Assembly: GCA_963931925.1 (NCBI GenBank)
Contig: OZ007576.1
Coordinates: 17,983,657-18,047,656, forward strand
Source of the DNA: Onchidella celtica
Lineage: Eukaryota > Mollusca > Gastropoda > Systellommatophora > Onchidiidae
Reading direction: 5' to 3'
DNA length: 64,000 bases
Shown here: one piece after another, positions 23,511 through 58,796 of the stretch
How the letters are laid out: the number at the start of each line of letters is the position of its first letter
Numbering within the stretch: position 1 is the stretch's first letter
Notes under the pieces: model-generated
Seen by the model: the letters and a program-made list of their open reading frames with translations, nothing else
Told to the model about the DNA's origin: nothing
The model's database searches: none
Translations under genes and position numbers: made by a program

Positions 23511-23515
23511 AGGGG

Positions 23516-24834
23516 TGTCAGGGTTAGGACTAGAAGTGTCGTGCTGGGTCACGGCTTGTTTATTTCATGGTCTCGTTAACTTTAGCCAGTGCAAATGTCC
23601 TTGAACTATTCTCGTGGACAGTTTGTTTTTGTAACGCTTTTTCTTAGAGATGGAAAGAAAGTGGGGCGGGATAGAATAAATGGAGGAGTTAACAGTGACG
23701 GTGCAATTTTCGACCCCGTGGTTTGGATGAACTCTAGCAGGGAAGAGAGGGGGGCGAATAAGGGCGAGATAGTAAATTCGTACATAAAACGTAGAGGGTT
23801 GGAGACTTTAGTGAGGGTTTTGATATGTTAATTTGACCTTGGCTGTTACTAGTGCAAGGCCGTGACCGATTTCCATGTAGAATCTATTAATACTACGAGC
23901 TGAGCTCGAAATGGATGCACCAATCAAATTTGGGCAGTTGGCTGGGGATTCGCAGATGGCCGAGCAGTATTTAAGCGGAGCCATTCCCACGTTTCTTCAC
24001 TCCCATGCAGAAATATCCTTCTGTGAAGGCAGTCGGCGTGATTCAGCCAGAGAGAATCAGAAGATTGTTATAGTCATGTCTATGACCTTGATAGACATTG
24101 GAATGAGACCATACGATTCCCACAAACCATCTACTGCTATTATCTCCAGCTCCCTGATCTCGTATCAGGGACCAAGTGTAAGTGTTTGTCTATTGATTCG
24201 ACGATGAACGTGAAGCTGACCTTAAATTCTCCAGTAGAAGTGCTACCGAAGGATGCAAGACTACAATGTATTTTAACTTGCAACTAGATCTAGCATGAAT
24301 GTCTGGTATACACATTTGTAAATTGAAATTGATGTGTCTGGATGAGGCTGGGGATTGCCAGCCCATCCTAGAGTAGATCTAGATCTAACTTAACTACGTC
24401 AGTTGTATTGACGAGTTTAATCCTTTATAAGCGGTAGGCACAAATAACTGAGTTAACATTGTCGTCTGAGACATTAGAATATTATTTGTAAGATAGTAGG
24501 CAGACTATATCTGGAAGATAGATAAGTAATAATTAAATTGTGAATGAGTCAGAATGATATAATCTTTTAGGAATCTAGAGGAGACTTCTAGTGATATGTT
24601 ATTGAATTTTCATTTGATGCTGCTGATGTTGTCCTTTTTAATATGTAAGAGCTAGACGAAATTTGTTAGGGATTTCAAAGTAAATAAATTTGTGGCCCTG
24701 CTGGTCCTTGATAAAACTTATTCGAATTGTTATTAGTATATGTGGCATGGTATGGAAGAATAATTCCTAAAAACCTCTCGATATTTTAAATGCAGTCGTA
24801 ACACCAATAATTCCATATAACCCAACTCGTAACA
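23516..24834 (+). repeat. Element A 5' LTR
   Basis: Runs from TGTCAGGGTTAGG to CCCAACTCGTAACA and matches 31442-32760 at all but about three positions. A TATTTAAG box at 23968-23975 lines up with a TATTTAAA box in the LTR of element B and is the likely core promoter. An AATAAA at 24683-24688 is a weak candidate polyadenylation signal. A 98-codon frame inside is present in both LTRs only because the LTRs are copies of each other. Confidence 0.95.
23968..23975 (+). promoter_or_regulatory. TATA-like box of element A LTR
   Basis: TATTTAAG in the context AGTATTTAAGCGG. The matching position in the related LTR of element B reads AGTATTTAAACCC, while much of the surrounding LTR has diverged. The same box occurs in the 3' LTR at 31894-31901. 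The transcription start is inferred to lie about 25-30 bp downstream. Confidence 0.55.
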
Positions 24835-24850
24835 CTGGAGAGGGACCCTT
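24835..24850 (+). other. Element A primer-binding region
   Basis: CTGGAGAGGGACCCTT directly follows the 5' LTR. The TGG one base in is what a tRNA 3' CCA end would pair with. Element B has CTGGAGGGGACTTAC at the same place, so the first dozen bases are conserved between the two families. I cannot assign the tRNA. Confidence 0.6.
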
Positions 24851-26221
24851 AAAGAACTTAAATAAGCCATGCCATAGGTAAATTATTTTAAAATCTATTG
24901 TATTTTTATTCCATTATTTAATATTGTACTGTTGTAACATTGTGTTTTCAGGTCCTTTTATTATAGATTTTAGGCAATTTGTATTAATTTAACATTTTGT
25001 TTCAATTTCATATGGTGAACTCAACATCCCATTGACCCGACGACACCGGCGAGGGACACCTTTCACCGTACAGATCTACCTGAGACAGAAACGCATTTTT
25101 TGGGCTTGGAGCTATGGTTTGAGGATACTTACCATCTGAATTCCTCAAAAACAAAGTTAAGTGATCCATCTATTTAACAGTCTTGAGGAGGGCGACGTAC
25201 TTTCCGCTCTGTGTGTTTCCAGGCTATTTTACCATTTACTATATGTTTAGTTTAAGAGCGGGAGGTTGGTTGGGGTCATAGTTTAGCATATCTTCTTTGC
25301 CATTTCGAAGGATATTGGAGTGCCTTGGTGGCTATTGATAACTCGGGGGGATTTGCTTCACTGTGAATAGTTCTATTAGGGATCCATTATTCGTATAGAT
25401 TGTGGCGTTTCTTTTCCTTCCTCACATTTCTTTAGGAAGATGTCTCTCCTGTCTTCTTCTTAAACTTTCTGTAACATAAGTTAGGACTTGTAGGGTCTGT
25501 TATCGTTCGTATTACTTGTCAGTATAGCGTCTTGTTAATTGTATTTCTTTTTGCTTCCTTATAAACTTTAAACTACTATACTAACATTGTTATGTTTACA
25601 ATATATGCCTGAGGTGTTTCACGTGCTAAAACCACGTTGAATTGTAATCTGGTATTGACATATGAGAGAGAGAGAGATATAATAAATTTTTGTTCACGTG
25701 CTAATTTCACGTTGAATATAGAGAGAATAATTTTGCAGTGGTAACAGAAGACACTGCGTGTGCGCGTTTTAAGAAGAGAGAGATATTTCAAATTTGTCGC
25801 GTTGAGAGAGAGATATAATTTTGATTCGTCGCATTGAGAGAGCGATACATTTTTGACAGTGATAACAGAGGACACTGGTTCGTCGCGTTGAGAGAGACAT
25901 AAATTTTTGAGAGTGATCACTCAAGACACTAATTTATCGCATTAAAGGCGATATATATATTTTATTGCAGTGGGAGCAACGGATAGACGGCACTGCCTTA
26001 CTAGAATTCATATTCAGAGAGAGAAAGATAAAGTTTTTGCAGTGGAAGACACACTGCCTGCAATTTACAGAGAGAGATAGAACGTTCTTTTCGCGAAGCA
26101 GTGCTAACGTAAGACACTGAATTAATATTAACAGAGAATAACTGTTATAAATAATATAATTGATACCGCGATATACCTTAACAGTAGGTAAATACTTACT
26201 AATTACAGACTTTAACATATC
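24851..26221 (+). repeat. Element A leader with degenerate internal repeats
   Basis: A leader of about 1.4 kb separates the LTR from gag. From about 25655 to 26105 it is made of degenerate units built from GAGAGAGAGATATAA, a T-rich stretch, GCAGTGGTAACAGAAGACACTG-like text and TCGTCGCGTTGAGAG. Each unit is roughly 45-75 bp and there are about seven of them. The leader of element B (57023-58423) carries related GCAGTGTCC...GTTATCACTG text on its coding strand complement, so the motif may be ancestral. Role unknown; packaging or translation control would be speculation. Confidence 0.7.
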
Positions 26222-29200
26222 ATGGCCGAGTTTCTTAAATACATTGAATCTGCCAAAGTTCTGGGTATACCAGAAGAAGAACGCGCCTCGTGGTGCGAAC
26301 GACAATTACAACAAGACCGAGATCGTGAGGATCGAAAAGAAGCAAGAGAAAGAGAAAGAGAAAAAGAAGAAAGAGAAAGAGAAAAAGAAAGAGAGAGAGA
26401 AAAGGAAAGAGAAAGAGAAAGAGAAAAAGAAGTAGAGAGAGAAAAGGAAAGAGAAAGAGAAAGAGAAAAAGAAAGAGAGAGAGAAAAGGAAAGGCAGCAT
26501 GAACTCGCAATAAAGAAGTTAGAGCAAGAATCGCTTGTGACCCCCACTACTGCCACCAATACTTATGCTACCAAACCAAAGCTGCCGACGTTTAATGAAA
26601 AACTCGACCGGATCGACGCATATTTACATCGGTTCGAGCTACACGCTAAATGCGTCGGATGGCAGCAGGCGATGTACAGTTCATGCCTGTCTAATTTACT
26701 AACAGGTAAGGCTCTGGAGGTATTTCATAGCCTCAAGGTAGAGGATGCCAACGACTACGACAAGCTTAAAACAGCACTGCTTAAGCGATTCCAGCATACC
26801 GAGGATGGCTTTCATCAGAGATTTCGCGCATGTAAACCTGAGCCATCTGAAAATTTCTCAACTTATGTGAATCGGCTGAAACATTACTTAGATCGCTGGA
26901 TCGAGCTCGCGAACGTGACTACCGGAAATTATTCCCAGCTGTATGATTTGGTCTTAAAGGACCAAATCTATACCGCATGTCATTCCGATTTGGTTGCCCA
27001 CCTTAAAGAGAGGGCACCGACATCCTCTGAAGAAATCACATCGTGCGCGGAACGTTATGCGTCCGCCCACCCAAATCGTCCTTTGGCAAAGCCTTCAACT
27101 ATAGCACCGTGTTATGCCAACGTGGGCAAAGGAGCGCCAACCGGACACGATCGTTCAAGGCCGACTCGTCGTCAGGCCCCAAATCCGCGCTCTCAATCAG
27201 AGCCACCTTTTTTTAGACAGAGGGATTTCCCGAATCGAAGTAATGTATCCCCACGTCGAGGATACCAGACTTACTCTTTTTACGAGCCTCGCCCATATTA
27301 TCGTGGCAACTATCCAGGCCAACAATATAACCGGCCTCAGGGACCGCCGCGACGAGTGCATTTTGATAATAATCATGATTATGATAGACCGCACAGTCTT
27401 CCTTATCGTCGAAACGATCCTAATCGTATTATGTGTTTTAGGTGTAATAGGGTAGGTCACATACAAAAATTTTGTAACGTGAAAATGGAATCGGCAAATG
27501 CCTGCTCTGTACAATCTACACCCTATACAGATGTTGGTTATACTAATAAATCTTCATCGCAATCAAAGGCTACTCCAGTCATGTCCGCCCTACATGAACT
27601 GGGTGAATTAACATTTTACCAGGGCCGCGTGAACGCGATTCGCGCTTCTGTTCTACGTGACTCCGGATGCACGACTATCGGCGTTCGACAGGCACTAGTC
27701 CGTCCAACACAATTTTTGGATAAAGACGTAACTTGTATTACTTTTGGCGGATCTGTAGAGCGATTCCGTCTTGCAGAAGTTTATATTGATACACCTTTTC
27801 TCACAGGTATTGTTACCGCATGTGTACTGCCTAATCCAGTGGCTGATATAATCATAGGGAATGTACCTCAAGTAAATAAGTTTCCTATCGGTAACTTGGA
27901 AATTTGGACTGAGGATGAGAGTGTTGCTTGTGCGACAACACGCCTACAATCGAGTCGACGAGCAGACAGTCCATTGAGTAATCCTACTATTGAAGTGAAC
28001 ATAACGTCTAGTGCATTTCCTGATGAGCAACATTCAGATCCCACATTGAAACATTTGTTTGCTAAGGTTGATCCTACCGCGCCGGATACCTCTAAGTTTC
28101 TTATTAAAGATGACTTATTATATCGTAATTTTCGGAGTAAGCGAGAGGCCGTTATGCAGCTTGTAGTACCGAGATCTTTTCGTCGCGACATTATTCGTCT
28201 CGCGCATGACACTTCCTTGGCGGGTCACCAAGGAAAGGCCAGAACTAAGTCTCGAATACTATCGCAATTTTTTTGGCCCAGTATTTACGCAGATGTAAAC
28301 CGGTTCGTATCAACATGTGACGTATGTCAGAGACGTACTCCTAAAGGAAGAGCATCGCGGGCTCCTCTGCAGGAGATGCCTATGGTCTCCAGACCATTTG
28401 AGCGCGTTGCCGTAGATATAGTTGGGCCCCTACACAAGTCAGACAGAGGACATCGTTTTATACTTTCTGTCATTGACTACGCAACCCGTTGGCCAGAGGC
28501 CATTCCGCTAAAAGACATTTCAGCCGATCATGTGGCTGAAGCGCTTATTACCATTTTTTCGCGTCTTGGGTTCCTGGTTGAAATTCTATCGGACAGAGGT
28601 CCACAGTTTACCTCTGAGCTTTTTAAGAAAGTCTTGGAATTGGTCGGGATTAAACAAAGATTGACATCTCCATACCACCCACAGTCTAATGGCTGCTGTG
28701 AACGATGGAATGCTACCATGAAAACTATGCTTGCGCGAGTTTCCGCCGACAAGCCGAGTGATTGGGATCGACAACTCCCCGCTATTCTTTTTGCATACCG
28801 AGAACTACCGAACGCATCGACGGGTTTTTCCCCCTTCGAATTATTGTATGGTCGCAAGCCGCGTGGTCCAATGGCCATACTCCATGATTTATTCGCCGGA
28901 TCAGACACCGACGACAACGATACGCGGTCTGCATATCAATACGTTGTAGACTTGCGGCATCGAATTCTTAACGCATGTCAGCTCGCACAAAAATCTTCAG
29001 CTGCGCATGCTAGTCTTTATAAACTATATCGTGATCAAGGTAGCCGATTGCGAACCTTGGCCGTCGGAGACCAAACTCTTGTTCTCCTTCCGGAGACGAA
29101 AAATAAACTCCTTCTTACATGGAAGGGACCTTTTAAAGTCCTAAAGAGACTTTCTCGAGTGAATTATCTTATCAAGATTCGGGGACAGGACAAAGTCTTC

Positions 29201-30759
29201 CATATAAATATGTTAAAGCAGTACCTGTCCGACGAGGATAATCGACAGAATAATCGCCGAAATGTGGTTGCTCAGGCCAATGCGGCCTTGGTTTCAGTTG
29301 ACGATGATGATCCTATTAAGATAGAGAATTCAATCCCCGCACTTCGATCTTCTGAAAACACTTCGGATGTAAATATAAATCCAGATCTGTCTGAATCACA
29401 AAGACAAGATATAAGAGATTTGCTTAACGAGTTTACTACAGTCTTTACTGATCTACCAGGTAATACTTCTTTGGTACAGCATGTTATAAGATTAAAGACG
29501 GATATACCCGTCTTTGTTAAACCATACCCGCGTCCGCTGCACGCACAGGAGACTATAATAACCGAGGTACGTAACATGTTTCACCTGGGAGTGATAGAGC
29601 GATCGACGAGTCCATATAACTCACCCATCGTCTTAGTGAAAAAAAAAGATGATACGGTGCGTTTTTGTATTGACTATCGTAAACTTAATGAGGTTACGAT
29701 ATATGACGCTGGACCGATTCCCAACCAGGAGAATCTTTTTGCTCAGTTAGCGAGGGCAACGATTTTTTCTAAAATTGACCTTTCCAAAGGCTATTGGCAA
29801 ATTCCGCTTGATGAGAATAGCAAGCAATATACCGCTTTTCAGACTCCGTTGGGTCTTATGCAGTGGCGCTATATGCCTTTCGGGTTAGTTACAGCCCCTG
29901 CCACTTTCGCCCGTATGATGACAATATTGCTCCAGGGTATGAATTCCGTATTGTCGTATTTTGACGACATTTGTATTTATGAAACCAATTGGTCGAGCCA
30001 CCTCGCAGCCCTACGACAAGTTTTTATTGCTCTTCGTCGAGCTGGCCTTACGGCGAAACCCAGTAAGGTGTTTTAGGATATAATGAAATTAATTTTCTGG
30101 GCCATACAATTGCCCACGGCGTTCAGACTCCTGATGACGAGAAGATAACTACCATCTTAAAGCTCCAACCTCCTCGAACTAAGAAAGAAGTTCGTAGTTT
30201 ATTGGGCTTTCTTAACTATTATAGGAAATTCATTCCAAATTTTTCTTCGCTTACAGCTCCGTTGTCGGACCTCACAAGAAAGAATTTTCCTAATAAAGTG
30301 AAATGGACGACCGAATGTGCTGATACACTTCGTACCGTTCAACAACTGTTTTCCACTTCCCCCATTCTCATACTGCCAGATATAAACCAAATATTTATTG
30401 TCCGCACTGATGCGTCGGACAAGGGATTGGGAGCTGTGTTGTTGCAGGAACGAGACGATACCTTGCGGCCTTGTCTATACGCCAGCCGCAAGTTGCTAGA
30501 TAGGGAATGCCGCTATGCAATTATCGAGCGAGAGTGCCTCGCTATCATTTTTGCTGTAAACGCATTTTCGCGATATCTACTCATGTCCGAGTTTATAATT
30601 GAAACGGACCATCGTCCGTTGTTATTCTTGAAGGCTAACAGGGCTAAAAATGCTCGATTAACGAGGTGGAGTCTTGCACTCCAGGAATACCGGTTTGTTA
30701 TCCGGGCTATCCCTGGCGGTGACAATTCCCAAGCTGATATTTTGTCACGTCTAATTTAG
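26222..30759 (+). CDS. Element A gag-pol coding region (fossil)
   Basis: The start at 26222 (MAEFLKYIESAKVLGIP) matches the start of the equivalent region in element B. A charged Glu/Arg/Lys tract covers about 26310-26500, then the gag capsid-like region to about 27080, and a CCHC zinc knuckle CFRCNRVGHIQKFC near 27433-27475. Protease has RDSGCTTIG near 27655-27685. Integrase follows: the H/C zinc-binding part ends CDVCQR near 28318-28335, then VDIVGPL, DRGPQF and the CCERW glutamate near 28413-28705, and a GPF/Y module (WKGPFKVLKRL) near 29124. RT (PYNSPIVLVKKKD, FGLVTAPATF, YFDDICIY) and RNase H (RTDASDKGLGAVL, ETDHRPLLFL) come last. The region is nearly open, with about one break. Confidence 0.92.
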
Positions 30760-31430
30760 TTTCCTATTAAAGAGTGTTGTGTCTTGTATTGGGGTTGGAT
30801 AGTGCTTGTCCCCCTCAATTCTAGACGGTGGATGGATTCACATTTATCTTGTTCATTACTTTGTGAACCAGTTTTACAATCTTTTTTTTGTGAATATCCT
30901 CTTTCCACCAGCGTCATTCCGGACTGTGACCTGAACTTCTGACAAACCTGACGCCCTTGTCAGCGGGTCAATGAGATGGAGACATGGCAAACCAAGCTAC
31001 CAGAGCTACTGCTGCCATTGGATACCACAGTATTTTAATTAACAATATACTGTGTGTGAATGTGTATATAAGCAGCAATTATGTGTGTTGACTAGATAAT
31101 TATGAGCCTATTCCTTCAGTAAGGCTTCATTGTTTGATAATAGTTATACTTTAATTGAACAGTATACAGTGATATACTCATTCTTATTATAGATGTTCCT
31201 GAGAAGTTTGATTGGGTGCAGTAAGAATATTTCGATAGAATAGATTCTATAGAACGTGGCATCAATAATTGTATGCTTTTTGTCCATCCAATATGCACGT
31301 TCTTAGTTAGATTTTTTTTTTTGGTCTCAAGCTTAAGGCTCGTTTTTCTACAGTAGTACTTAAGCCCCTACCACAAGAACTTTGGGATTTCTTGGATCCT
31401 ATCGTGTAAATTTTTATTAAAATTTTCACT
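30760..31430 (+). other. Element A 3' untranslated region
   Basis: Non-coding segment between RNase H and the polypurine tract. Parts align with the corresponding region of element B (for example GCGGGTCAATGAGATG and ATGCACGTTCTTAG in both), which allowed the LINE insertion borders in B to be read. Confidence 0.75.
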
Positions 31431-31441
31431 GGGGTGGGGGA
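31431..31441 (+). other. Element A polypurine tract
   Basis: GGGGTGGGGGA lies immediately before the 3' LTR, preceded by TTTTCACT. The same TTTTCACT plus purine tract occurs in element B on the minus strand (plus-strand about 47535-47552), so this is the plus-strand priming site of both families. Confidence 0.75.
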
Positions 31442-32760
31442 TGTCAGGGTTAGGACTAGAAGTGTCGTGCTGGGTCACGGCTTGTTTATTTCATGGTCTC
31501 GTTAACTTTAGCCAGTGCAAATGTCCTTGAACTATTCTCGTGGACAGTTTGTTTTTGTAACGCTTTTACTTAGAGATGGAAAGAAAGTGGGGCGGGATAG
31601 AATAAATGGAGGAGTTAACAGTGACGGTGCAATTTTCGACCCCGTGGTTTGGATGAACTCTAGCAGGGAAGAGAGGGGGGCGAATAAGGGCGAGATAGTA
31701 AATTCGTACATAAAACGTAGAGGGTTGGAGACTTTAGTGAGGGTTTTGATATGTTAATTTGACCTTGGCTGTTACTAGTGCAAGGCCGTGACCGATTTCC
31801 ATGTAGAATCTATTAATACTACTAGCTGAGCTCGAAATGGATGCACCAATCAAGTTTGGGCAGTTGGCTGGGGATTCGCAGATGGCCGAGCAGTATTTAA
31901 GCGGAGCCATTCCCACGTTTCTTCACTCCCATGCAGAAATATCCTTCTGTGAAGGCAGTCGGCGTGATTCAGCCAGAGAGAATCAGAAGATTGTTATAGT
32001 CATGTCTATGACCTTGATAGACATTGGAATGAGACCATACGATTCCCACAAACCATCTACTGCTATTATCTCCAGCTCCCTGATCTCGTATCAGGGACCA
32101 AGTGTAAGTGTTTGTCTATTGATTCGACGATGAACGTGAAGCTGACCTTAAATTCTCCAGTAGAAGTGCTACCGAAGGATGCAAGACTACAATGTATTTT
32201 AACTTGCAACTAGATCTAGCATGAATGTCTGGTATACACATTTGTAAATTGAAATTGATGTGTCTGGATGAGGCTGGGGATTGCCAGCCCATCCTAGAGT
32301 AGATCTAGATCTAACTTAACTACGTCAGTTGTATTGACGAGTTTAATCCTTTATAAGCGGTAGGCACAAATAACTGAGTTAACATTGTCGTCTGAGACAT
32401 TAGAATATTATTTGTAAGATAGTAGGCAGACTATATCTGGAAGATAGATAAGTAATAATTAAATTGTGAATGAGTCAGAATGATATAATCTTTTAGGAAT
32501 CTAGAGGAGACTTCTAGTGATATGTTATTGAATTTTCATTTGATGCTGCTGATGTTGTCCTTTTTAATATGTAAGAGCTAGACGAAATTTGTTAGGGATT
32601 TCAAAGTAAATAAATTTGTGGCCCTGCTGGTCCTTGATAAAACTTATTCGAATTGTTATTAGTATATGTGGCATGGTATGGAAGAATAATTCCTAAAAAC
32701 CTCTCGATATTTTAAATGCAGTCGTAACACCAATAATTCCATATAACCCAACTCGTAACA
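31442..32760 (+). repeat. Element A 3' LTR
   Basis: Same length (1319 bp) as the 5' LTR and nearly identical to it. It ends CTCGTAACA before the target duplication AGGGG. Confidence 0.95.
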
Positions 32761-32765
32761 AGGGG

Positions 32766-46319: not shown

Positions 46320-47532
46320 TGTCGCGATGTGGGTTAGATGGGGAGAATTCGACTGACACTCTTTCGAGGTCCGCTCCCACAATCGACGAACACACAAAAA
46401 AAAATACTTGCACTCTAAAAACTAAATAAATCAATTGCTTTGATTTTTAGCAGAACTGTAGGGCAGTTTAATTACAGGAATTAATGTAACAAATATAATT
46501 ATAAATATAAATATCAATTCAAAGGCAACTGAATCTAACTAATGAAACTACAGCTTTCTATAAAGACTAACTTATTCACTCTAACTACTTGCAGGTCATA
46601 TGAGTTATATGCCAAATAGAATCCGCGCACGTGGCGACGGATATAACAGTTTAAATTCTATTAATTCAATGAGACATGTTATGATATGGACATTTCCTCT
46701 AGACACGCCATGGAGAATGCTTGTACAACCATGCGTTGTCTGGCGGTAACTCTGAAACTGTCTTCAAAAGTAAGTAGAGCGGTTCACTTTCATCATTACA
46801 AATTAGTATGAACTCTCACCATTAGGCCCTCACTGGGAGTGAGAGCGCTGGATGTAAACGCTGTGGGTTCATATCAAACCAAGTAGCTTAGGCTCTGGAG
46901 CTTTAACTCATGGCGCTCCTCACAATATATGGACTGCTCAACTGCGTCTCTATGTCTCTCATCTGGCTGAGGACTATCGCCGTCCACCTCGTAAGTGGAT
47001 TGTCTACATGTGGCCTCTATCTAAGCTCTGCACGGGTTTAAATACTAAAGCTATGTCTCGACCTTCCGTCCAGATTCATACATTTGATTGGTGCAGTCGC
47101 TTCAGCTCAGCCTGCAATATTAATTTACGCTTGTCATGGCCTTGCGCCAAAATCAAGGTCAATTTTACGGTCTAGACAAAATTTAAAATGCGAAACATTA
47201 ACTACTAAAATCTTCAAACCCCGTGCTTTCTACTCTTATGCACGAATTTCCGAACGCCAACTAAGCGTCTAAATAAACTACCTTTACTCGCCCCTTATCT
47301 ATGTTAATCAAAATCACGGGGTCGAGAACTGCTCTGTCATTCCTAGCTATACATTTATTCTGTCTCGCCCCTCCTTCTCTCCATCCATCAGAAAAAAGGC
47401 GTTTCAAAACAAACTGTTCACGAGAACAGCTCAAGGACAAATTACGCTGGTTATACTCAACAAGATCGCAAAAATTAACTCACTGACGTCGTGACCTAGC
47501 ACGGCATTTATGATCCTAATGTGATCGTGACA
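46320..47532 (-). repeat. Element B 3' LTR (uninterrupted)
   Basis: This 1213-bp LTR reads, on the minus strand, from TGTCACGATCACATTAGG to CATCGCGACA. It matches 58424-58593 plus 62256-63307 apart from a few substitutions and one 4-bp length difference in an AT-rich run. It is recognisably homologous to the LTR of element A (shared TTCTCGTG-ACAGTTTGTTTT, CGACCCCGTG and TTGACCTTG blocks). A TATTTAAA box lies on the minus strand at 47037-47044. Confidence 0.93.
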
Positions 47533-47692
47533 CATCCCCCACCCCAGTGAAAACTTAGGGTTTGAACTACATAACTGTCTACTAACGTTGCTATGTAATA
47601 GTACTTTTGAAAGGGCTATATAGTAAAAAATATAGCGTTACTGAAAGCCAAAAAAAAAAAATTCTAAGAACGTGCATTATCGATGGACAATA
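47533..47692 (-). other. Element B polypurine tract and end of 3' untranslated region
   Basis: On the minus strand TTTTCACTGGGGTGGGGGA lies two bases before the 3' LTR, the same as in element A. The plus-strand TGGACAATA at 47684-47692 is the left copy of the LINE target duplication. Confidence 0.75.
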
Positions 47693-47747
47693 TATATATG
47701 GCCTTTAGCGTCTTTACAGACGGTCTTAGCAGCTAGAATATTCACTT

Positions 47748-50700
47748 TCACTTTGACTGACAGCTTCTCTCGTGGCTTATTCTACCAATGTTTGACCCGA
47801 GAGTGCGATGGCAGTGATTGCAGGTCAGTCTTTTGGGTTCACTTTGGCGAGTGTTTTCATTCCGCCTCTGTCGTTTTGTCAGGTATGTTTCTTTTGCCTT
47901 GAAGTCTATTGCGAGCGTGCCACTGCGCAATTTTTGTCTCCATCTGCTTCGATCATTTGCAAGGTTCTCCCATTCATTGGGGTCGATGTTGAATGCTTTC
48001 ATCGTGACCTTGCAAGTGTCTTTGAATCGCAGATGTGGCCTACCTCTGGGTCGGTTGCCAGTAGCAAGTTCCCCGTAGAGAATTTGTCTGGGGATGCGAT
48101 CATTTTCCATACGGTGGAGATGTCCAAGCCACCGCAGTCTTTTTTTGCCTAGGAGAGCCTGAGTTGATGGAATGTTGGCTCGGCTCAGAACTTCGATATT
48201 TGAGATCCTGTCTTGCCACTTGATCTTGAGAATTTTGCGTAGGCAGCGCAGGTGGAAGGAGTTGAGGGATCTTTCATGTTTGGAGTAGGTGGTCCATGTC
48301 TCTGAGCCATACAGCAGGGTGCTTAGGACGCAAGTTTGGTACACGAGTACCTTTGTTTTGATGGTCAGCTTGCTATTGTTCCACACCCTTTTTTAAAGTT
48401 TGCCAAAAGCTGTGGCCGCCTTTCCTATTCTGGCATTTATTTCAGTTGTTATGTCTGTGCTACCACTGATGGTTGAGCCTAGGTAGCAGAATTTTCCCAC
48501 TTGCTCCAGAGGAGAGCCATTCAGCATGATTGGGTTGGGGTTTCTCAAGCCTTGTGTCAAAACTACAGTTTTTGAGACACTGATCCTTAGCATGAATTTG
48601 TCACAGGCTTTGGCAAGGCTATTGATGAGAGCCTGGAGCATGGTTTCATCGTGGGCCACGATTGCAGCATCATCTGCGAAGAGGAGCTCTTGTAACATAA
48701 TATGCTCTGTACGAGATTTTGCTTTTAGTCTGGCAACATTAAAAATGGAGCCGTCCACTCTGGTGTTAATAAGTACTCCACCTGAACATTGACCAAAGGC
48801 ATTCTTGAGTAGGGCTGCAAAATATATACCAAATAAGGTAGGAGCAAGAACACATCCCTGCTTCACACCGCTGTTTACAGCAAATGAATTGGATGTGCAG
48901 CCCTCAAAGTTGACACATGCCCTCATGTCAGTGTGGAAGGATGCAATAAGTTTTAGCAATGTTGGTGGACAGCCTATGGATTTAAGGACTCCATACAGGC
49001 CAGATCGGCTTACGGTGTCGAAAGCCTTTGTTAGGTCCACAAAGCATGTTATAAGCGGCCTGTTTTGTTCTTTACATTTTTCTTGGATTTGCCGAAGTGC
49101 AAATATCATGTCAATAGTTGATCGTTTGCTTCGAAAGCCACATTGTGTTTCTGGTAAGACTTTTTCCGCCAGTTGTTGAAGGCGGCAGAGGATGACGCGA
49201 GCAAAAGCCTTTCCAGTAATGCTGAGGAGGGATATGCCTCGATAGTTGTTGCAGTCGCCTTTGTCTCCTTTGTTCTTGTAAAGTGTGACAATTTTGGCGT
49301 CTCTCATATCATGTGGTATCACGCCTTCTTTCCCACACTGCAGTAACAGATTATACAGGTGTGGTAATAGTGGGCCTTTTAGGTCTTTTAATACCTCTGC
49401 AGGAATGTTGTCACTTCCTGTGGCTTTTCCAGCAGACAGGTGGTCGATTGCATTGGAAAGCTCGACTAAGGAAGGTTCAGCGTCAAGTTCGGCCATTATT
49501 GGCAGTTTTTGGAGGTGTTCCTCAAAATCTGGTGGAATATTTTTCTCAGTTGAATACAACAGAGAGTAATGCTCTACCCACCTATTCAGTTGTTCATTTT
49601 TATCTGTGATGGGTTCACCATTTACAGACTTAAGTGGGGCGCTTTTGGTGATGATTGGCCCAAGAGCTACTTTCATCTGACTAAAGGCGGTTTTCATATC
49701 TCCCTTTTCATTTGCCTCTTGTATGCTGTTACACAAGTCTGTCCAGTATTTGTTGGCGCAACGTCTTACCTCCAGCTGAAGTTTAGCTTTTGCATTTTTC
49801 AAACAAGTTTTTGTACTCTGATTGCAATTTTTGTTATACTCATTGAAAGCAGATTTCTTTTGCTCAATGAGAGGTAGGAGAATTTCGCTGTTCTGGGCTA
49901 CCCAGTCGTTGTTTGAAACTTTATGCTGTCCAAAAGACTTGATGGCACAGTCATGAATTTTTGAACTGAGAGTGTTCCATGTTTCATCTACCGAGTCACA
50001 TTGGGTGACATTATCCATGCTTTCAGCAAATAACTTTTCAAATGACTTTCTATTTGATTCATCTCTGATTGCTGTTACATTGATCTTAGGGATTGAAGGG
50101 GCTTTTGATCTGTATATTTTCTTGGCCGAAATTTTGATTTTGCTGACTACCAGTGCATGGTCGGTGTCACAGTCAGCACTGTGGAGGGAACGAGTTATTT
50201 TTATACAGCCCAAACTCTTCCTCCTTGAGAGAATAAGATCTAATTGATGCCAATGGCCAGACCTGGGATGGCGCCATGATGTTCTTTCGCATCTCTTAAG
50301 GTCAAAGTACGTGTTTGTAACACATAATGAGTTTACGGAGCATAGCTCCAGAAGGCGCTGCCCGTTTTCGTTGATGTTGCCAATGCCGAAGTGCCCAATG
50401 CACTTTGGCCATGCGGAGTGATCTGCTCCCACTCGAGCGTTAAAGTCACCCAGAATTAGCAGGCCTTCGGTGAGAGGGATGTTGTGGAGAGTCCTCTGCA
50501 ATGCCTCGTAGAAAATGTCTTTGGTTTCGTCAGAGGAGGTAAGTGTTGGGGCATAGACACAGATAATGTTGGTAAAACCAGACCGGGTGTTCAGTCTGAG
50601 TGTCATGATGCGTTCTGACACTCCAATTGGAGTTGCGATCGAATTGATAAGGGAGTTTTTTACGGCGAAGCCCACGCCGTGGATTCTCGGCTGTTCGCTG

Positions 50701-50966
50701 CTAAGGCCCTGCCAGAAGAAGGTGTAGTTTTCTTCTTTGACTGACCCGGAGTCGGGAAGTCGAGTTTCTTGAAGGGCAGCGATGTCGATGTTTAGTAGCT
50801 GAAGTTCTCGATCAATAATTTGGGATTTCCTGATGGAGTCAATATTAGTGAGATCTTGCTGTTGCAAGCCTGGGCGCATTGTTCTGACGTTCCAGGTACC
50901 AAGTTTTAGTATTTTTCTGTTTTTGCCAGGTGCACACTTTACGTCAGCTTTTTGACTTTTGGTCTA
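47748..50966 (-). pseudogene. LINE endonuclease-reverse transcriptase ORF with one in-frame stop
   Basis: The frame is open from just after a stop at about 50967; the first ATG is at 50879. The endonuclease starts KLGTWNVRTM, upstream of that ATG, so translation probably begins earlier. Endonuclease motifs follow: IDIAALQETRLP, LLILGDFNARVG, SWRHPRSGHWHQLDLILSR and CDTDHALV. The RT has CNNYRGISLLS, CGFRSKRSTIDMIFALRQI, FVDLTKAFDTV, GVKQGCVLAPTLF and LLFADDAA. A TAA at 48393-48395 interrupts the frame; the same frame continues to 47748 with RWLGHLHRM and a C-terminal CCHC-type finger (CNHCHRTLGSNIGRISHERSC is 21 long; key residues C, C, H, C). One nonsense codon in about 1070 means a recently active lineage. 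The protein would nick target DNA and copy LINE RNA there. Confidence 0.87.
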
Positions 50967-51651
50967 GCTCCAACCACCTTATGAAGCAGGCTGACGTGGC
51001 GGAACAACACCCAACTGCCTGGGGGCTGCCCAGGTTACGGCGGGCGGTAGTTGATCAATGCAGCTGAAAAGCCGCTCCCACCGACAGAGGGGACCCCTGG
51101 CTCTCATCCGTACGCCAAATGGATTGAGCTTATCACCGGTAACTGCCACCTCCCGTGTTGTGCCCATCCGTAACGGATGGCTGGAGTGTCCTCTCCAAAT
51201 CGGAAATGGGTGGGCTTATAGAGGAGAGACAGACGCTTGCCAAGCCCGAGCAAACGCCTCCTCGTTTTGCTGCCTTGCCTGGGCTATTTTTAAGAGATGG
51301 TGCTTTGCCCAGAGGCACCACCCCTCTCTCTGCCATTCTAGTTAAACCCAAGGGAGAGACCAGGTCAATACATTTGGAACTAGTCCGGCTGCAGGAGATG
51401 CTGGAAGCCAGTTTGATGCAGTTCTCCCTGACAACCACCTTCGGGTCTCCACTCCTGATTTTCTGTCTGGGTTTACTCCCATAGCCTTTGCTATCATAGC
51501 AACACACAAGGCAGTGTGGTATTTGTATTCAGGGTTACCTTCCCCTAGTCTTCCTCTCTCCCGAGATGACCCACAAGACAGCGGGGGTGACAGTAGCAGG
51601 CTGTATTGTGTACTGTCGTACAATAGCAGAAAACTCTGGCCTGACAAAACT
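50967..51651 (-). other. LINE 5' region
   Basis: This is the segment upstream of the endonuclease frame inside the LINE. A 124-codon minus-strand frame at 51133-51507 (beginning MCCYDSKGYG) has no recognisable domain and may be untranslated leader or a remnant of a first ORF. GC content is higher than in the surrounding element. Confidence 0.55.
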
Positions 51652-51660
51652 TGGACAATA

Positions 51661-52105
51661 GCATATGTATATTTATATGCGACGTTCTGTGATAATATAC
51701 AATTATTGTAGCACTTAAGAATTAAAGTGATAAACTTCTCTCACACAGACATACTGTAAAGACTGAAATATTGAGCAACTAGCTCATCGCTTCATTGAGC
51801 GTAATTAATACATTCATAGAACATGAACGAACAATAGTTAATTAAAGTAATGGTATCCTGGCAGCAGTAGGTCTGGTCGCTCGGTTTGCCATTTTCTCAT
51901 CTCATTGACCCGCAGACAAAGGCGTCAAGGTTGTCTGAAACTCAGGTCATGGTCAGGATGGACGCTAGTGGAAAAAGGAATCACATGGAAATTTTTGAGA
52001 AAGAATGTCCATAATTGGTAGGACAATATAATGTGAAACCATCCACGGTCTCCGAAAAAGGTGAAAAATGCTCAACCTCAATGTTCAACAGACTATTTTA
52101 GAACA
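51661..52105 (-). other. Element B 3' untranslated region, part before the LINE
   Basis: Aligns on the minus strand with the 3' untranslated region of element A (for example the TGCGGGTCAATGAGATG block, GACCTGAG/AACTT and CTACTGCTGCCA), which identifies it as part of B and not of the LINE. Confidence 0.75.
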
Positions 52106-55100
52106 CTAAATCAAACGGGACAATACATCAGCTTGTAAATTATCCTCCCCAGGTATAGCCCGAATAGTAAATTTGTATTCCTGGAGCGCAAGGCTCCATC
52201 TGGTTAGTCGAGCATTCTTGGCTCTGTTCGACTTAAGAAACAGTAATGGTCGATGATCCGTTTCAATTATAAATTCGGACATTAATAAGTATCGAGAAAA
52301 TGCATCTACCGCGTAAACAATTGCGAGGCACTCTCGTTCGACAATCGCATAGCGCGTCTCTCGATCAAGTAATTTCCGGCTTGCATATAAGCACGGTCGC
52401 AAGAAACCGTCACGCTGTTGGAGTAACACGGCGCCTATTCCTTTATCTGACGCATCCGTTCGGACGACGAATGTCTGGCGTATATCGGGTAAAACAAGCA
52501 GGGGGAAAGTAGAAAATAAATTCTGGATAGTCTGAAGGGCATCAGCGCACTGAGGCGTCCAGACGACTCTATTTGGAAGATTCTTCCTCGTTAGATCTGA
52601 TAACGGGGCTGAGAGAGAGGAAAAGTTTGGTATAAATTTCCTGTAATAATTCAAAAGTCCCAACAAGCTACGGACTTGCTTTTTAGTTTTAGGGGGTTGC
52701 AGTTTCCAAATACTGGATATCTTGCGATCGTCTGGAGTCTGAACCCCGCGGGTTAGTGTATGACCCAAAAAGTTTATATGGTGATATCCCAGGAACACTT
52801 TACTGGGTCGCGCGGTAAGGCCAGCTCGGCGAAGAGCGGCAAAAACTTCACGAAGGGCCATTAAGTGGCCAGCCCAATCAGCCTGAAAAATACATATATC
52901 ATCGAAATATGATAGAACGCAGCGCAGTTCATTTAGTAAGATGTTCATCATGCGCGCGAACGTGGCTGGTGCAGTAACCAGTCCAAAAGGCATATATTTC
53001 CATTGCATTAAACCCAAAGGGGTTTGAAAAGCTGTATATTGTTTACTTCCTTCTTCGAGAGGAATCTGCCAATATCCTTTGGATAAGTCTATTTTAGAGA
53101 AGATACTTGCATTGGATAACCGCGCGAATAAGTCCTCCTGATTGGGAATGGGTTCCGCATCATAGATGGTTATAGCATTGAGCTTTCCATAGTCAATACA
53201 AAAACGTACGGTATCGTCTTTCTTCTTGACCAAGACAATCGGCGAGCAATACGGACTTGTTGATCGCTCTATCACACCTAGCCGTAGCATGGCACGTACT
53301 TCTGTAATTATCGTTTCGTGAGCGTGCAGCGGGCGCGGGTACGGTTTAACAAACACCGGTACGTCTGTCTGAAGTCGTATTACATGTTGGACTAAAGACG
53401 TACAACCCGGCAAATCAGTGAACACCGTGGCAAATTCTTGGAGCAGGTGTGTAAGATCCTGTTTCTGCGACGGCGTAAGCTCATCATTAATATTAACATC
53501 GTTTATACTCTCGGTGGCCTGTAATATGGGCAACGATTTGTCGATACTCAAAGGGTCCTCGTCGTCGACAGTAACTAAAGCCGCGTTGGCCCTTGGGACG
53601 ACATGAACGGAGTTGTTACGACGATCATCGCTAGGCAGGTACTTTTTCAGCATATTAATATGAAATATTTTCCTCTGCCCGCGAATATCTATCAAATAAT
53701 TCACTCTGGAGAGTCTCTTAAGGACTCTGTATGGTCCCTTCCAAGTTAGAAGGAGTTTGTTTTGCGATTGCGGCAAAAGAACAAGTGTCAGATCTCCGAC
53801 TGACAAGGCGCGCATTTGGATGCCCTGATCGCGATAAAATTTTGAAGAACTCGCTCTAGCGCATGCAAATTGCAGAGCGGTTTTGCATGCATTAATAATT
53901 CGTTGTCGGAGATCGACAACATATTGATACGCGCATCGCGTATCATAATCGTCGGTTTCAGAGCCGGCGAACAATTGACTAAGTATGGCCATCGGGCCAC
54001 GTGGTTTACGTCCGTATAATAACTCAAATGGGGAGAAACCCGTGGACGCGTTCGGGAGTTCCCTATAGGCGAAGAGAATAGCGGGGAGCTGACGGTCCCA
54101 GTCTCCAGGTTTGTCGGCGGATACGCGTGCTAGCATAGACTTCATGCTCGCATTCCACCGCTCGCAACAACCATTTGACTGCGGATGATAGGGGGACGTT
54201 AATTTCTGTTTAATTCCCGCTAATTCTAGTACCTTTTTGTATGCAAGGCGTTATTTACAAGGCATACCTTGAAACTAACTCTAGCGTTATTTTCAAGGCA
54301 TACCTTAACAGCTCCTGATTGGTCAATGAAACATGCCTTGAAAATAACGCTGGCGTTAGTTCCAAGGCATACCTTGAGTCCAATAAACAATACATAGCTA
54401 CCCCGGCGGCTTTCCCTGATATGTCAATCTGACTACTACCCAGACGAACATCGGCCTACGGCCTCGATGATACAAACTGACTAGACCCTCACGTCGTTAC
54501 ATATCAGCCTGACAATGCACAGTCTAAGGCTCCACGTTTAGAAATACTGAAACAGCTTCTGATTGGTCAATGAAACATGCCTTGAAAATAACGCTGGCGT
54601 TATTTCCAAGGCATGCCTTGAAAATAACCACTTCGTTTTTGTATAGATCAGAGGTGAATTGTGGTCCTCTGTCTGAAAGAATCTCGGTCGGAAATCCGAC
54701 TCGCGAGAAAATAGTAACAAGTGCCTCAGCGACATGGTCAGCCGTAATGTCTCTTAAAGGAATAGCCTCAGGCCAGCGCGTCGCGTAGTCGATTACCGAA
54801 AGGATGAATCGATGGCCTCTGTCTGATTTACTAAGAGGACCTACTATGTCAACTGCGACACGCTCGAATGGTGTTGAGACTGGAGGCATCTCCTGAAGGG
54901 GTGCGCGTGATGCTTTACCTTTAGGTGTACGTTTTTGACATACATCGCAGCGCGCCACAAAACGGTTCACGTCCGAGTATACACCAGGCCAGAAAAAATG
55001 AGCCAATATCCGTGATTTGGTTCTGGCTGAACCTTGATGGCCTGAAAATGATGTATCATGCGCGAGACGCAGAATGTCGCGGCGGAACGACTTAGGCACC

Positions 55101-57022
55101 ACGAGCTGTTCAATGGTCTCACGTTTACTTCGGAAATTTCTGTATAATAATTCATTTTTAATGATAAACGGAGAGGCATTTCCGTTCTGAGGCTGAACTT
55201 TCGCAAACAGCGGTTTTAGTGATGGATCGCTTTGTTGTTCCTTATAGAAAACTGTGGGCGTGACATTAAAATCAAACGCAGGGGTTTGTAAATTACCATC
55301 CGGTGGACGTTTTGACTGTTGTCGTGTGGTGACACACGCAACGTTTTCGTTCCAAACTTTTAACTGGCCGTCAGGTGTATCATTGACCTGTGGTAAATTA
55401 CCAATAATTAGATCGGCAACCGGATTTGGTAATACGCATGCCGTTACGACACCTGTAATGAATGGCGTGTCGATGTATATCTCCGCGAGACGGAATCGCT
55501 CGACGGAGCCCCCGAAAGTAATGCAAGTTGCCTGTTGTTCAATCAGCTGGGTCGGTCTGACCAGTGATTCCCCAACACCGATAGTGGTGCAACCTGAATC
55601 GCGTAAGACAGACGCGGGTATGGCGTTAACATGACCCTCATATAAGGTCAATGACCCGTGTTGATGGAGGGCCGACATAACCGGAACGGTGCCCGTCATG
55701 GGCGACGTGAGTTCAACGCTACGGCTACTCTGTGCAGCCGGAACAATGACGGTGCAAGCATTTGCAGCTTCAAACTTAACCCTACAATATTTTGACGTAT
55801 GGCCTGGTTTATTGCACCGATAACACCTAGTGCTGTCATATATATTACGTCTGGGTTGCATTGGAGGTACATTATATGGATTATTATAATATGCCCAAGG
55901 AGGTGGACATGGTGGGCGCTGATAATGGTAGCCCTCGTTAACGTCACGACGGGGTGGACCTGAATAGCGAATAAAATGTCCCCGAGTGGGAGGTCCAGCA
56001 CGGCTTGGAAAACCGCGAGCTTTATTGGGCGGCGGTTCGGAATATGCACGCGGAGGCGGCGTCTGGCGATGAACTGGTCGGGAATTTCTTGTACCCATTG
56101 GCGCAGTTCCACCGACTCCGGCATAAAACGGTTCGCTAGTTTTGGCTTTAGCCAGCGAACGATTAGGGTGTGCGGACGCGTACTGTTCTACTAAGGACGT
56201 GATTTCCGCTAACGTCTTAGGTGGCCACTCCTTAATGTGGGAGACTAGTTCTGAATGGCACGCGTTAAATATTTGGTCCTTCAGAACGAGCTCATAAAGC
56301 CCTTTAAAATTACCGTCAGCGACACCGGCCAGCTGAATCCAGCGGTCTAAGTAGTGCTTTAGGCGGACGACGTACGTTGAAAAATTTTCGGACGCGTCTG
56401 GCTTACAACTCCGGAATCTTTGGTGAAAACCGTCCTCTGTGTGTTGAAAACGCTTTAAAAGAGCCTTTTTAAGGATGTCGTAATTTTTAGAATCCTCGAT
56501 GTTGAGGCCATGGAATACCTCAAGTGCACGTCCCGTTAATAAATTTGCAAGGCACGAAGTCCATTCAGTTCTTTCCCATCCGGCGGCTACCGCGTGGAGC
56601 TCAAAACGATGAATATAAGAATCGATCTGGTCGACCTTATCATTATAGGTTGGAAGCTTTGGTTTTGCTTTAACATTATTCGTTGGAACACTTGGATCCG
56701 CGGTCGGTTGGTTTCCTTGCAGCTCTAATTTCTTTAGGGCAATTTCGTGCTCTCGATGAGCCGCTTTGTCGGCTCTTTCTTCTTTTTCTCTTTGTCGTTC
56801 TCTTTCTTCTTTTTCTTTTTCTCGTTCGCGTTCCGCGGCCTTCTCGGCTCTTTCTTCTTTTTCTTGTTCTCGTTTGCGTTCCGCGGCCTTCTCGGCTCTT
56901 TCTGCGGCACGCTCTTCTCTAGCTAGGTCTTCTTTTAGTCTACTCTCGCACCAAGAAGCCAGCTGGTCCTCGGGTATGCCTAACAGCTTCGCTGAATTTA
57001 TATAGGAAGTGTAATCGGCCAT
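52106..57022 (-). CDS. Element B gag-pol coding region (fossil, split by a MITE)
   Basis: Starts at 57022 with MADYTSYINSAKLLGIPEDQ, clearly related to element A. A charged tract rich in Glu, Arg, Lys and Ala covers about 56735-56965. The CCHC knuckle CYRCNKPGHTSKYC is near 55786-55830 and the protease motif RDSGCTTIG near 55575-55605. Integrase comes next, with CDVCQKRTPKG, VDIVGPL and DRGPQF between about 54650 and 54960, and its C-terminal part with the WKGPYRVLKRL module near 53730. RT (PYCSPIVLVKKKD, FGLVTAPATF, YFDDICIF) and RNase H (RTDASDKGIGAVL, ETDHRPLLFL) reach the stop at 52106. Integrase therefore precedes RT, as in element A. A 393-bp MITE sits in the integrase region; otherwise the region looks nearly open. 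Confidence 0.9.
54243..54635. mobile_element. 393-bp MITE in the integrase region of element B
   Basis: Flanked by a perfect 9-bp duplication TTTTTGTAT (54234-54242 and 54636-54644). Ends form an imperfect terminal inverted repeat of about 29 bp: the left starts GCAAGGCGTTATTTACAAGG and the right, reverse-complemented, starts CGAAGTGGTTATTTTCAAGG. The palindrome-like word CAAGGCATRCCTTG recurs several times. A block of about 45 bp (TGATTGGTCAATGAAACATG onward, ending GCTGGCGTTA) occurs twice, near each end (54313-54358 and 54557-54602). No transposase. A 9-bp duplication would fit Mutator-like or Merlin elements, but the termini do not settle it. Confidence 0.85.
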
Positions 57023-58408
57023 TATGATTAGTTACACTCACAATAGGTCTCTACAGGAGATCTATTAATGTTAATGGACAGGTATCCGGATAAATTCACG
57101 CAATAACCCGTCTGACAGTGTACTATGTTATCACTGTAGTATTTACGTTAATCCGATACGCGATAAAAAATATTTACTTATTTAACTCCGCGATTATTAA
57201 TCCCTGAGGCAATTTGCACTCGTCGGGTCAACGTCACTAGTAGACGACAAAATACAAACAATGTTCCTTCTTCAATGAAATCGCAGTGTCCTTACTGTTA
57301 TCACTGCCGATGTAATATATAATTACATGTGAATCAACGAATATTAGATCGTTGATTAATATTTTTAGCTATTTTTCTATAGCTCTTGTATAATTGCAAT
57401 TGCAAGGTAATTTTATTACCTGAAGTTCTCTTTAAAGAACAATAACTTCAGTAATTATATACTGGATATTCAAGGCAGGTGCACAACTGCACTTGAATGG
57501 GGAATCAATATTCCCAATATATAAGTATATACTCTGGCGTATCAGCTTTATACGTCACAATAACCAGATAAACTCAATCAATGCGTCAATGTAGACACAT
57601 GACTCACACAGGCATTATATTAAACAAAGGAATGTACCAACACCATAATGATAAAGGTCTAATGAAAAAAAATACACCAAACACGACGCTAGACAAACAA
57701 GAAAAGACGAACGATAACAGACCCTACAAGTTCTGAATATAATTACAGATAGGTGAGAAGAGAACAAGAGAGACGTCTTCCCAAAGAGACGAGGAAGATG
57801 TGAAAGCCACAATCTAAACAAATATACAGGTCCCTAACAAAGACTATTCTCACGAATGCGAATCCTCACTGTTTTAATCACCACTGGTTGTTGCGAGACC
57901 GCAGACGTTGTCGTCGAAACGGCAAAATCGGCGACCAAGCCACCACTTTGGCACAGAGGACACGCACACGTAAGAACCCTCGCCGACCTCCCGCAGTTTT
58001 AACAAAGAAGAAAAGTATAAAAAGCCTGTAAAACACGAGGAGGAACACTCAACTCCCCAGACGCAGACAAAATTTTAGGATGGAATCACTTAACTTTCAA
58101 GGAACTGGGTGGTAATTCCTTTAGCCCTTGCGTACACCACAGTCAGTCTTTTTTGTCTTTCACCGTTCCAAGTTCTGTTCTGTAGTCTGCCTGGCCTCGG
58201 TCATCGGGTCAATGGGAGAGCAGCGACATATGTGGAAGTAAAAATAACAAAGCAGTATACAAAACTAAATAATAAATAATTTTAAACTAGCTCAACGTGC
58301 GACACCCCGTGAGCGACGGATCATGAAAAGAACAAAAATGTAATGCAAACAAAGAGAAAAGGTGATTATAATCTAACGAATTTAAGAAATTAAGGATTAA
58401 GAAATTTG
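57023..58408 (-). other. Element B leader
   Basis: Non-coding leader of about 1.4 kb between the 5' LTR and gag, the same length as in element A. It contains AT-rich palindromic stretches (for example around 57318-57372, with ATTAGATCGTTGATTAAT) and CACTGT/GTTATCACTG words resembling the degenerate units in the leader of A. Confidence 0.65.
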
Positions 58409-58423
58409 GTAAGTCCCCTCCAG
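58409..58423 (-). other. Element B primer-binding region
   Basis: On the minus strand CTGGAGGGGACTTAC follows the 5' LTR directly, matching CTGGAGAGGGAC at the same place in element A. The tRNA is not assigned. Confidence 0.6.
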
Positions 58424-58593
58424 TGTCGCGATGTGGGTTAGATGGGGAGAATTCGACTGACACTCTTTCGAGGTCCGCTCCCACAATCGACGAACACACA
58501 AAAAAAAATACTTGCACTCTAAAAACTAAATAAATCAATTGCTTTGATTTTTAGCAGAACTGTAGGGCAGTTTAATTACAGGAATTAATGTAA

Positions 58594-58796
58594 TGTTGAT
58601 ATAAGATATTGACTGACAGGTCTTAATAACACAACAAAGACGTTTCAACTCAAGAGCAAATTTATTGTGTGCCGCATGTCCTTGATTACAATAACAAGGG
58701 GCGTCACTCCAGAACATAGAAACAAAAGAGTAATTACGTAATTCGTACTTCATTAGTTTTGGGGTTTTATGAATTAAATATTAAGATATATCAACA
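58594..58796 (-). repeat. Element C 3' LTR
   Basis: 203-bp LTR with inverted ends TGTTGATATA...TATATCAACA; matches 62036-62255 except for a 17-bp stretch absent here and about one substitution. Confidence 0.92.

What the first reader, a model, noticed from the sequence alone, without database searches (positions are those of the whole stretch)
26222..30759. Gypsy-type element with integrase before reverse transcriptase (element A)
The zinc-binding and catalytic integrase motifs (CDVCQR, VDIVGPL, DRGPQF, CCERW) and the GPF module lie upstream of the RT motif YFDDICIY and RNase H. The RT and integrase sequences are Ty3/gypsy-like, yet this order is that of Ty1/copia. From the literature this combination defines the Gmr1-like group, first described from deuterostomes. 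If the organism is a mollusc or another protostome, this is a well-preserved, recently moved member outside the original host range.
Basis: partly seen in the sequence, partly recalled or inferred. Interest (0 to 1): 0.72.

Follow-up and report, generated by a model that had tools for sequence, protein, structure and literature searches.

The report
Reordered gypsy retrotransposon in a mollusc
A young copy of a gypsy-type jumping gene whose integrase is encoded ahead of its reverse transcriptase sits in what appears to be a gastropod genome; it belongs to a known unusual kind, here with over a thousand related copies and two unusual offshoots.

Summary
At 23,511-32,765 lies one LTR retrotransposon: 1,319-bp LTRs differing at 3 sites, 5-bp target duplication. 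One frame (26,222-30,076) encodes gag, protease, integrase and most of RT in that order; a second frame carries the RT end and RNase H, so this copy is frameshifted. Mitochondrial gene order points to a gastropod (recalled). Of 63 loci tested, 60 have integrase before RT, 3 integrase only, 0 the usual order; RT-first gypsies exist in the same genome. Integrase-first families form one RT clade (95/95); the integrase tree is unresolved. Gag carries a SCAN-like capsid domain, which the literature ties to Gmr1-like elements. I read it as Gmr1-like, but no real Gmr1 sequence could be placed in the tree. Gmr1-like elements were already published from crustaceans (2013) and an annelid (2021), so the host-range argument is not new; a 2018 mollusc survey table lists no Gmr1 clade. 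Also seen: 1,164 integrase sites; a subfamily with an in-frame TGA between gag and pol in a readthrough-type context; and a related family of at least 78 integrase matches, RT-less in 3 of 3 copies checked.

The parts
23511..23515 (.). target-site duplication AGGGG, left
   Evidence: identical 5 bp at 32761-32765
23516..24834 (+). 5' LTR, 1319 bp, TG...CA
   Evidence: 3 differences to the 3' LTR
24836..24848 (+). putative primer-binding site, one base after the LTR; tRNA not identified
   Evidence: position and TGG start; inference
26222..30076 (+). ORF1: gag - protease - integrase - RT (most)
   Evidence: open frame 26216-30076; Pfam
26807..27070 (+). SCAN-like part of the gag capsid
   Evidence: PF02023 2.2e-6, 27.8 bits against cut-off 27 when gag is scanned alone; 1e-5, 25.7 bits, below cut-off, in the whole ORF
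27434..27475 (+). CCHC zinc knuckle
   Evidence: motif by eye; Pfam zf-CCHC 0.24 only
27659..27670 (+). protease DSG motif
   Evidence: motif by eye; no Pfam protease hit in this copy
28166..28342 (+). integrase zinc-binding domain (H2C2)
   Evidence: PF17921 9.9e-21
28388..28681 (+). integrase catalytic core (acidic residues in VDIVGPL, DRGPQF and, just after, CCERW)
   Evidence: PF00665 1.5e-12; positions
29126..29218 (+). integrase C-terminal GPF module
   Evidence: PF22938 1.4e-6
29636..30070 (+). reverse transcriptase core, YFDDICIY at 29957
   Evidence: PF00078 1.2e-26; best solved relative Ty3 RT 8.8e-37
30067..30759 (+). ORF2: RT end and RNase H, in another frame than ORF1
   Evidence: open frame; PF17917 8.4e-34
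31430..31441 (+). polypurine-like tract before the 3' LTR
   Evidence: sequence
31442..32760 (+). 3' LTR, 1319 bp
32761..32765 (.). target-site duplication AGGGG, right
51834..57031 (-). element B: second integrase-first family member, 73-74% identical DNA over two matched pol stretches, frame interrupted
   Evidence: collinear match; ORFs 54524-57031 and 52106-54250; Pfam

Best explanation
Element A is a recently inserted, now frameshifted copy of an LTR retrotransposon from a Ty3/gypsy lineage whose polyprotein runs gag-protease-integrase-RT-RNase H, most likely the Gmr1-like lineage. Shown: paired LTRs with TG...CA ends, 5-bp target duplication, single-frame order from gag to RT, 1,164 related integrase sites, several divergent families with the same order in the same genome. 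Inferred: it is copied by the usual LTR route (transcription from the LTR, a gag-pol polyprotein cut by the protease, a capsid built from a two-lobed CA of which the second lobe is SCAN-like, tRNA-primed reverse transcription, integration by a GPF-bearing integrase). The order does not imply another mechanism, only another order of cleavage products. This copy would need proteins from sister copies.
For: Order in one frame. LTRs and target duplication. 60 of 63 loci integrase before RT, 3 integrase only, 0 reversed. Integrase 36-mer with up to 3 mismatches: 1,164 sites, reversed control 0. Further families with this order: B (window), D (L042/L066), S (L084, one 985-aa frame), and L083 from another organism. 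RT tree: integrase-first rows one side of a branch, 93/93 (5 of 13 rows) and 95/95 (6 of 13 rows). Best solved RT relative is Ty3, 8.8e-37, ahead of a chain that I recall as a caulimovirus RT, 7.6e-25. SCAN in gag: A 2.2e-6, D 1.1e-7, E 1.2e-12 above cut-off; B 8.5e-6 and L083 2.1e-4 below cut-off; none in the Mag-like polyprotein of the window. Literature: SCAN shows striking homology to the capsid of Gmr1-like gag (PMC4592553, passage) and was found only in Gmr elements among frog LTR elements (PMC4131045, passages). Fish Gmr families have one gag-pol frame of 1506-1634 aa (PMC11117352, table passage); here 21 of the 112 listed integrase matches have a frame of 1480-1530 aa. Codon differences to the window copy: 157 silent, 39 changing over 10 copies chosen by the H2C2 model.
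Confidence: 0.85

Rival explanations
1. The integrase-first order arose independently in this mollusc lineage, so the elements look like Gmr1 but are not its descendants.
For: No Gmr1 reference in the trees; integrase tree unresolved.
Against: Several families with integrases about half identical share the order in this genome and in L083, so the change is old; gag carries the SCAN-like domain that the literature reports for Gmr elements.
Confidence: 0.1
2. The order is an artefact of two neighbouring or nested ordinary elements, or of misassembly.
For: Nested elements do occur in this window, and tandem arrays with constant spacing occur in the genome.
Against: Integrase and RT share one 1286-aa frame between one LTR pair with a target duplication, and 60 of 63 loci on many contigs show the same order.
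Confidence: 0.01
3. The locus is a domesticated host gene rather than a mobile element copy.
For: Silent changes exceed amino-acid changes among copies.
Against: Paired near-identical LTRs, target duplication, frameshift in RT and over a thousand integrase sites.
Confidence: 0.02

Closest known systems
Gmr1-like Ty3/gypsy retrotransposons (Gmr1 of Gadus morhua; Goodwin and Poulter 2002, title seen in a reference list only)
   Same: Protease-integrase-RT-RNase H order with gypsy-type enzymes; single gag-pol frame near 1,500 aa in a fifth of listed copies; SCAN-like gag capsid
   Different: Host is a mollusc; LTRs of 1,319 bp against 337-518 bp in the fish Gmr families of PMC11117352; sequence relation to Gmr1 itself not tested
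Crustacean Gmr1-related elements GyRex4, Gychoro2, GyMaja1, GyLiva4 (PMC3587641) and annelid LGF3 (PMC8220671)
   Same: Protostome hosts; reported there as Gmr1-related or within the Gmr1 family by trees (passages)
   Different: Sequences not held here, so not compared
Mag-lineage gypsy elements (lineage name by eye and recall)
   Same: Ty3/gypsy; such elements lie in the same window and genome (window 59,326-61,651, L069, L075)
   Different: Usual RT-RNase H-integrase order; no SCAN hit in the window's one
Ty1/copia
   Same: Integrase before RT
   Different: RT matches Ty3 best, integrase matches spumavirus and Ty3 best; the one chain that I recall as Ty1 integrase (7z0h_W) is far weaker, 1.9e-6

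Membership tests
LTR retrotransposon | paired LTRs with target-site duplication | tested here: met
   1319-bp LTRs, 3 differences, AGGGG both sides
Ty3/gypsy superfamily | RT and integrase of Ty3/gypsy type | tested here: met
   RT best solved match Ty3 8.8e-37; integrase with H2C2, rve and GPF module, PFV 3.8e-29 and Ty3 6.2e-29 close together
Gmr1-like clade | integrase upstream of RT | tested here: met
   one frame; 60 of 63 loci, 3 integrase only, 0 reversed
Gmr1-like clade | RT and integrase group with Gmr1 references in trees | not tested
   no Gmr1 sequence held; two viral-contig scans found no relative, genome contigs only L083
Gmr1-like clade | SCAN-like gag capsid | tested here: met
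   PF02023 over cut-off in gag of A, D, E; under cut-off in B, L083 and A's whole ORF; feature taken from PMC4131045 and PMC4592553 passages
Gmr1-like clade | integrase-first elements are one lineage by RT | tested here: met
   93/93, 95/95, against gypsies of this genome (order verified for 3), Ty3 and a presumed caulimovirus only
Gmr1-like clade | integrase-first elements are one lineage by integrase | tested here: inconclusive
   p-AU 0.526, 0.263
Ty1/copia | copia-type RT and integrase | tested here: not met
   Ty3/gypsy-type solved-structure matches rank first; no copia reference was placed in a tree

The most novel reading that the evidence does not exclude
In this mollusc the integrase-first lineage has diversified in expression and autonomy: one subfamily of A makes pol by reading through a UGA between gag and protease in a CARYYA-type context, and a sister family (E) has lost RT and most of RNase H, keeps gag-protease-integrase, and still spread to at least 78 copies by borrowing reverse transcriptase from relatives. 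The SCAN-type capsid would then be older than vertebrates.
Probability: 0.4. Interest if true: 0.65.

Novelty: new member of a known kind. Interest (0 to 1): 0.45.

Why it matters
It adds a high-copy mollusc host (and probably a mussel host, L083) for the integrase-first gypsy lineage, where a mollusc survey's clade table lists no Gmr1 clade (PMC6238403 Table 1, passage). SCAN-like gag capsids in a mollusc give a protostome comparison for the origin of the vertebrate SCAN domain. Families in one genome with fused gag-pol, a gag-stop-pol arrangement, and no RT in the copies checked offer a natural comparison of how the order of pol domains bears on expression and loss of autonomy.

Tried and rejected
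Tandem or nested ordinary elements as the cause of the order: rejected (one frame, one LTR pair). Finding Gmr1 references: viral contigs scanned with an integrase and an RT alignment, no relative; genome contigs gave one locus, L083, in a bacterial symbiont bin; Goodwin and Poulter 2002 and Emerson and Thomas 2011 are not held. RT-first controls: a motif pattern gave 30 hits against 8 for its reversed control; 13 of the 30 were fetched; 3 of 13 hold readable RT then integrase (L068, L069, L075), 3 RT without readable integrase (L074, L077, L079), 7 no gypsy RT frame (L070-L073, L076, L078, L080). L077 was used and dropped (partial RT). PF00078 hits gave no loci and were not used. Retroelement capsids (PNMA2, MLV, Arc, copia), not SCAN, head the fold searches; SCAN chains were not in the rows shown, which excludes nothing. 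Single-sequence search of E's gag against solved structures met a SCAN protein (Zinc finger protein 24) at E 0.27 only. Primer tRNA and host species: not identified. An LTR 36-mer gave 34 sites only, so the LTR type of A is a small subset; solo LTRs were not counted.

Full report
What is there. The finding lies inside one LTR retrotransposon at 23,511-32,765. The LTRs are 23,516-24,834 and 31,442-32,760, 1,319 bp each with three differences, start TG and end CA, and are flanked by AGGGG on both sides. ORF1 (ATG at 26,222, end 30,076; 1,286 aa from the preceding stop) holds gag, a zinc knuckle, a protease DSG motif, the integrase zinc-binding, catalytic and GPF parts, and then RT with YFDDICIY. 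ORF2 (30,067-30,759) holds the RT end and RNase H in another frame. Copies with one long frame exist elsewhere in the genome: among the 112 integrase matches, 21 have a frame of 1,480-1,530 aa.

Age. Three differences in 1,319 bp is 0.23%. With an assumed rate of 2-8 per billion years per site (recalled, not measured for this host), this is roughly 0.1-0.6 million years.

Host. The genome is 1.14 Gb in 43 contigs. Its 13,988-bp mitochondrial contig runs cox2, then atp6 and nad3 on the other strand, nad4, cox3 on the other strand, nad2, cox1, nad6, nad5, nad1, cob (ORFs; Pfam for 10 frames: nad4 and nad2 both only as Proton_antipo_M, nad6 below its cut-off; nad5 named from its place, not scanned). 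I recall this as the order of euthyneuran gastropods; that assignment comes from no call. The species is unknown.

Copies and order. The integrase piece matched 112 scored places at 98-100% identity, of 15,449 first-look candidates. A 36-base integrase word with up to three mismatches occurs 1,164 times, its reversed control 0 times; if all these sites belonged to full-length copies they would make about 9 Mb, under 1% of the genome. Of 63 loci tested for order, 60 have integrase before RT on the same strand, 3 show integrase only (L050, L052, L058), none the reverse. The 63 are all loci that cut out except L001 (no match), plus L083 and L084; L003 is the window copy, and L012/L013 and L061-L063 are tandem copies. 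Besides A and B, the same order is seen in family D (integrase about 50% identical to A; L042 with L066), family S (L084, integrase, GPF, RT and RNase H in one 985-aa frame) and L083. Gypsies with RT before integrase exist alongside: L068, L069, L075, and a deleted Mag-like element in the window itself.

Trees. With A, a sister copy, B, D and L083 against six other gypsies of this genome, Ty3 and 8r0s (a caulimovirus RT by recall; 13 rows), the integrase-first rows are one side of a branch at 93/93. With S added and the partial L077 dropped, 95/95. Of the six other gypsies, the RT-first order was verified for three (L068, L069, L075); L074, L077 and L079 show RT only. The integrase trees do not resolve the question: p-AU 0.526 with ten rows, 50% of bootstrap trees with one clade; p-AU 0.263 with nine rows, 8%; long branches lead to the other rows. 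So the RT supports one lineage and the integrase neither supports nor rejects it.

Against known elements. Gmr1's order is described in PMC2582038 (passage), PMC6238403 (passage) and PMC8220671 (passage). Gmr1-related elements were reported from crustaceans as the first in protostomes (PMC3587641, passages) and from an annelid (PMC8220671); PMC8556966 counts Gmr1 among five clades present in several phyla and did not find it in its own annelid set (passages). The mollusc survey PMC6238403 lists Gypsy clades in molluscs in Table 1 without Gmr1 (passage). Of the 33 papers in the held library with both words Gmr1 and Gypsy, all listed by title, PMC6238403 is the only one whose title names molluscs, and its one mention is background; related searches (with 25 of 228 rows seen, 73, 74 with 12 of 91 rows seen) showed no report of Gmr1-like elements in molluscs in the rows seen. 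The library is open-licence only, Repbase was not searched, and MolGy clades may include integrase-first elements.

A relative from another organism. L083 is a 5,441-bp contig filed under a Candidatus Thiodubiliella genome bin, with one 1,476-aa frame gag-protease-integrase-RT-RNase H. Ca. Thiodubiliella endoseptemdiera is a mussel symbiont (PMC10469979, passages), so this is probably host DNA in the bin; the sample behind this bin was not checked.

Two offshoots. First, a shared in-frame TGA stands between gag and protease. In one search it ends the frame upstream of integrase in 14 of 30 loci (L003-L032). In one search a search word that already contains the TGA and the next CAA finds it in 18 of 60 loci; the gag frame upstream is open over the stretch held in 14 of 18 (4 have 7-13 stops), the pol frame downstream is open to the end of the stretch in 11 of 18, and the six bases after the stop are CAATCA in 16 and CAATCC in 2. 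CAATCA fits CARYYA, which stimulates readthrough and can act on UGA (PMC3542737, passage). 35 of the 112 matches have a frame of exactly 1,066 aa; all 9 of these that were fetched carry the stop. Six of eight fused copies looked at (L003, L004, L007, L016, L024, L028) have a sense codon there followed by the same six bases (in L009 and L017 the anchor was not found at that place). So the context may be older than the stop, all cases may go back to one change, and readthrough is inferred only. Gag and pol separated by a leaky stop is called very rare in a fungal survey (PMC3441728, passages). Second, family E (integrase about 41% identical to A) has at least 78 integrase matches at 90-100%; in 3 of 3 copies checked (L050 with L067, L081, L082) RT and most of RNase H are absent and only a 28-30-aa RNase H tail follows integrase. 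Whether most of the 78 lack RT was not checked, though three neighbouring pairs are spaced 4.7-5.0 kb against 7.9 kb between the LTRs of A.

Selection. Against the window copy, codon differences in integrase were 399 silent and 59 changing over 29 copies, but those were ranked by protein similarity; over 10 of the 14 A-type copies, outside the H2C2 domain by which they were chosen, 157 and 39 (left out: L037, L052 and the tandem copies L062, L063). Both suggest constraint during spread.

Judgement. The most likely reading is a Gmr1-like element in a gastropod, young, high-copy and here frameshifted. That is a new member of a known kind; the interest lies in the mollusc host, the SCAN-like capsid in a protostome and the two offshoots.

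Noticed in passing
L005 and 17 other A-family loci, 191 codons before the integrase piece (window equivalent near 27,557): Shared in-frame TGA between gag and protease, followed by CAATCA (CARYYA type) in 16 of 18 loci found with a word that includes the CAA; possible readthrough subfamily.
   Followed up: partly
L050, L067, L081, L082: Family E keeps gag-protease-integrase but lacks RT and most of RNase H in 3 of 3 copies checked; at least 78 integrase matches.
   Followed up: partly
L061-L063 and G000:C13:23550441-23599265: Tandem arrays of A-type elements with constant spacing (seven at 8,108 bp; others at 7.7-7.9 kb on C1, C2, C7), as expected if copies share LTRs.
   Followed up: no
window 46,484-63,308, minus strand: Element B lies between a repeat pair of about 1,050 bp (99.2% identical) together with a LINE-type ORF (48,393-50,963) and a deleted Mag-like gypsy (59,326-61,651); the exact nesting was not resolved.
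   Followed up: partly
L083 1-5441: Retrotransposon contig filed in a bacterial symbiont genome bin (JAQRGB010000044.1), a likely binning contaminant from the animal host.
   Followed up: partly
L084 and G000:C15:2583305: Family S: SCAN match 3.3e-10 in a 1,524-aa frame; many other SCAN matches lie in frames of 1,517-1,531 aa.
   Followed up: partly
window 26,334-26,493 and 50-207: The repeat coding for the charged start of gag resembles a low-complexity repeat at the window's left end.
   Followed up: no
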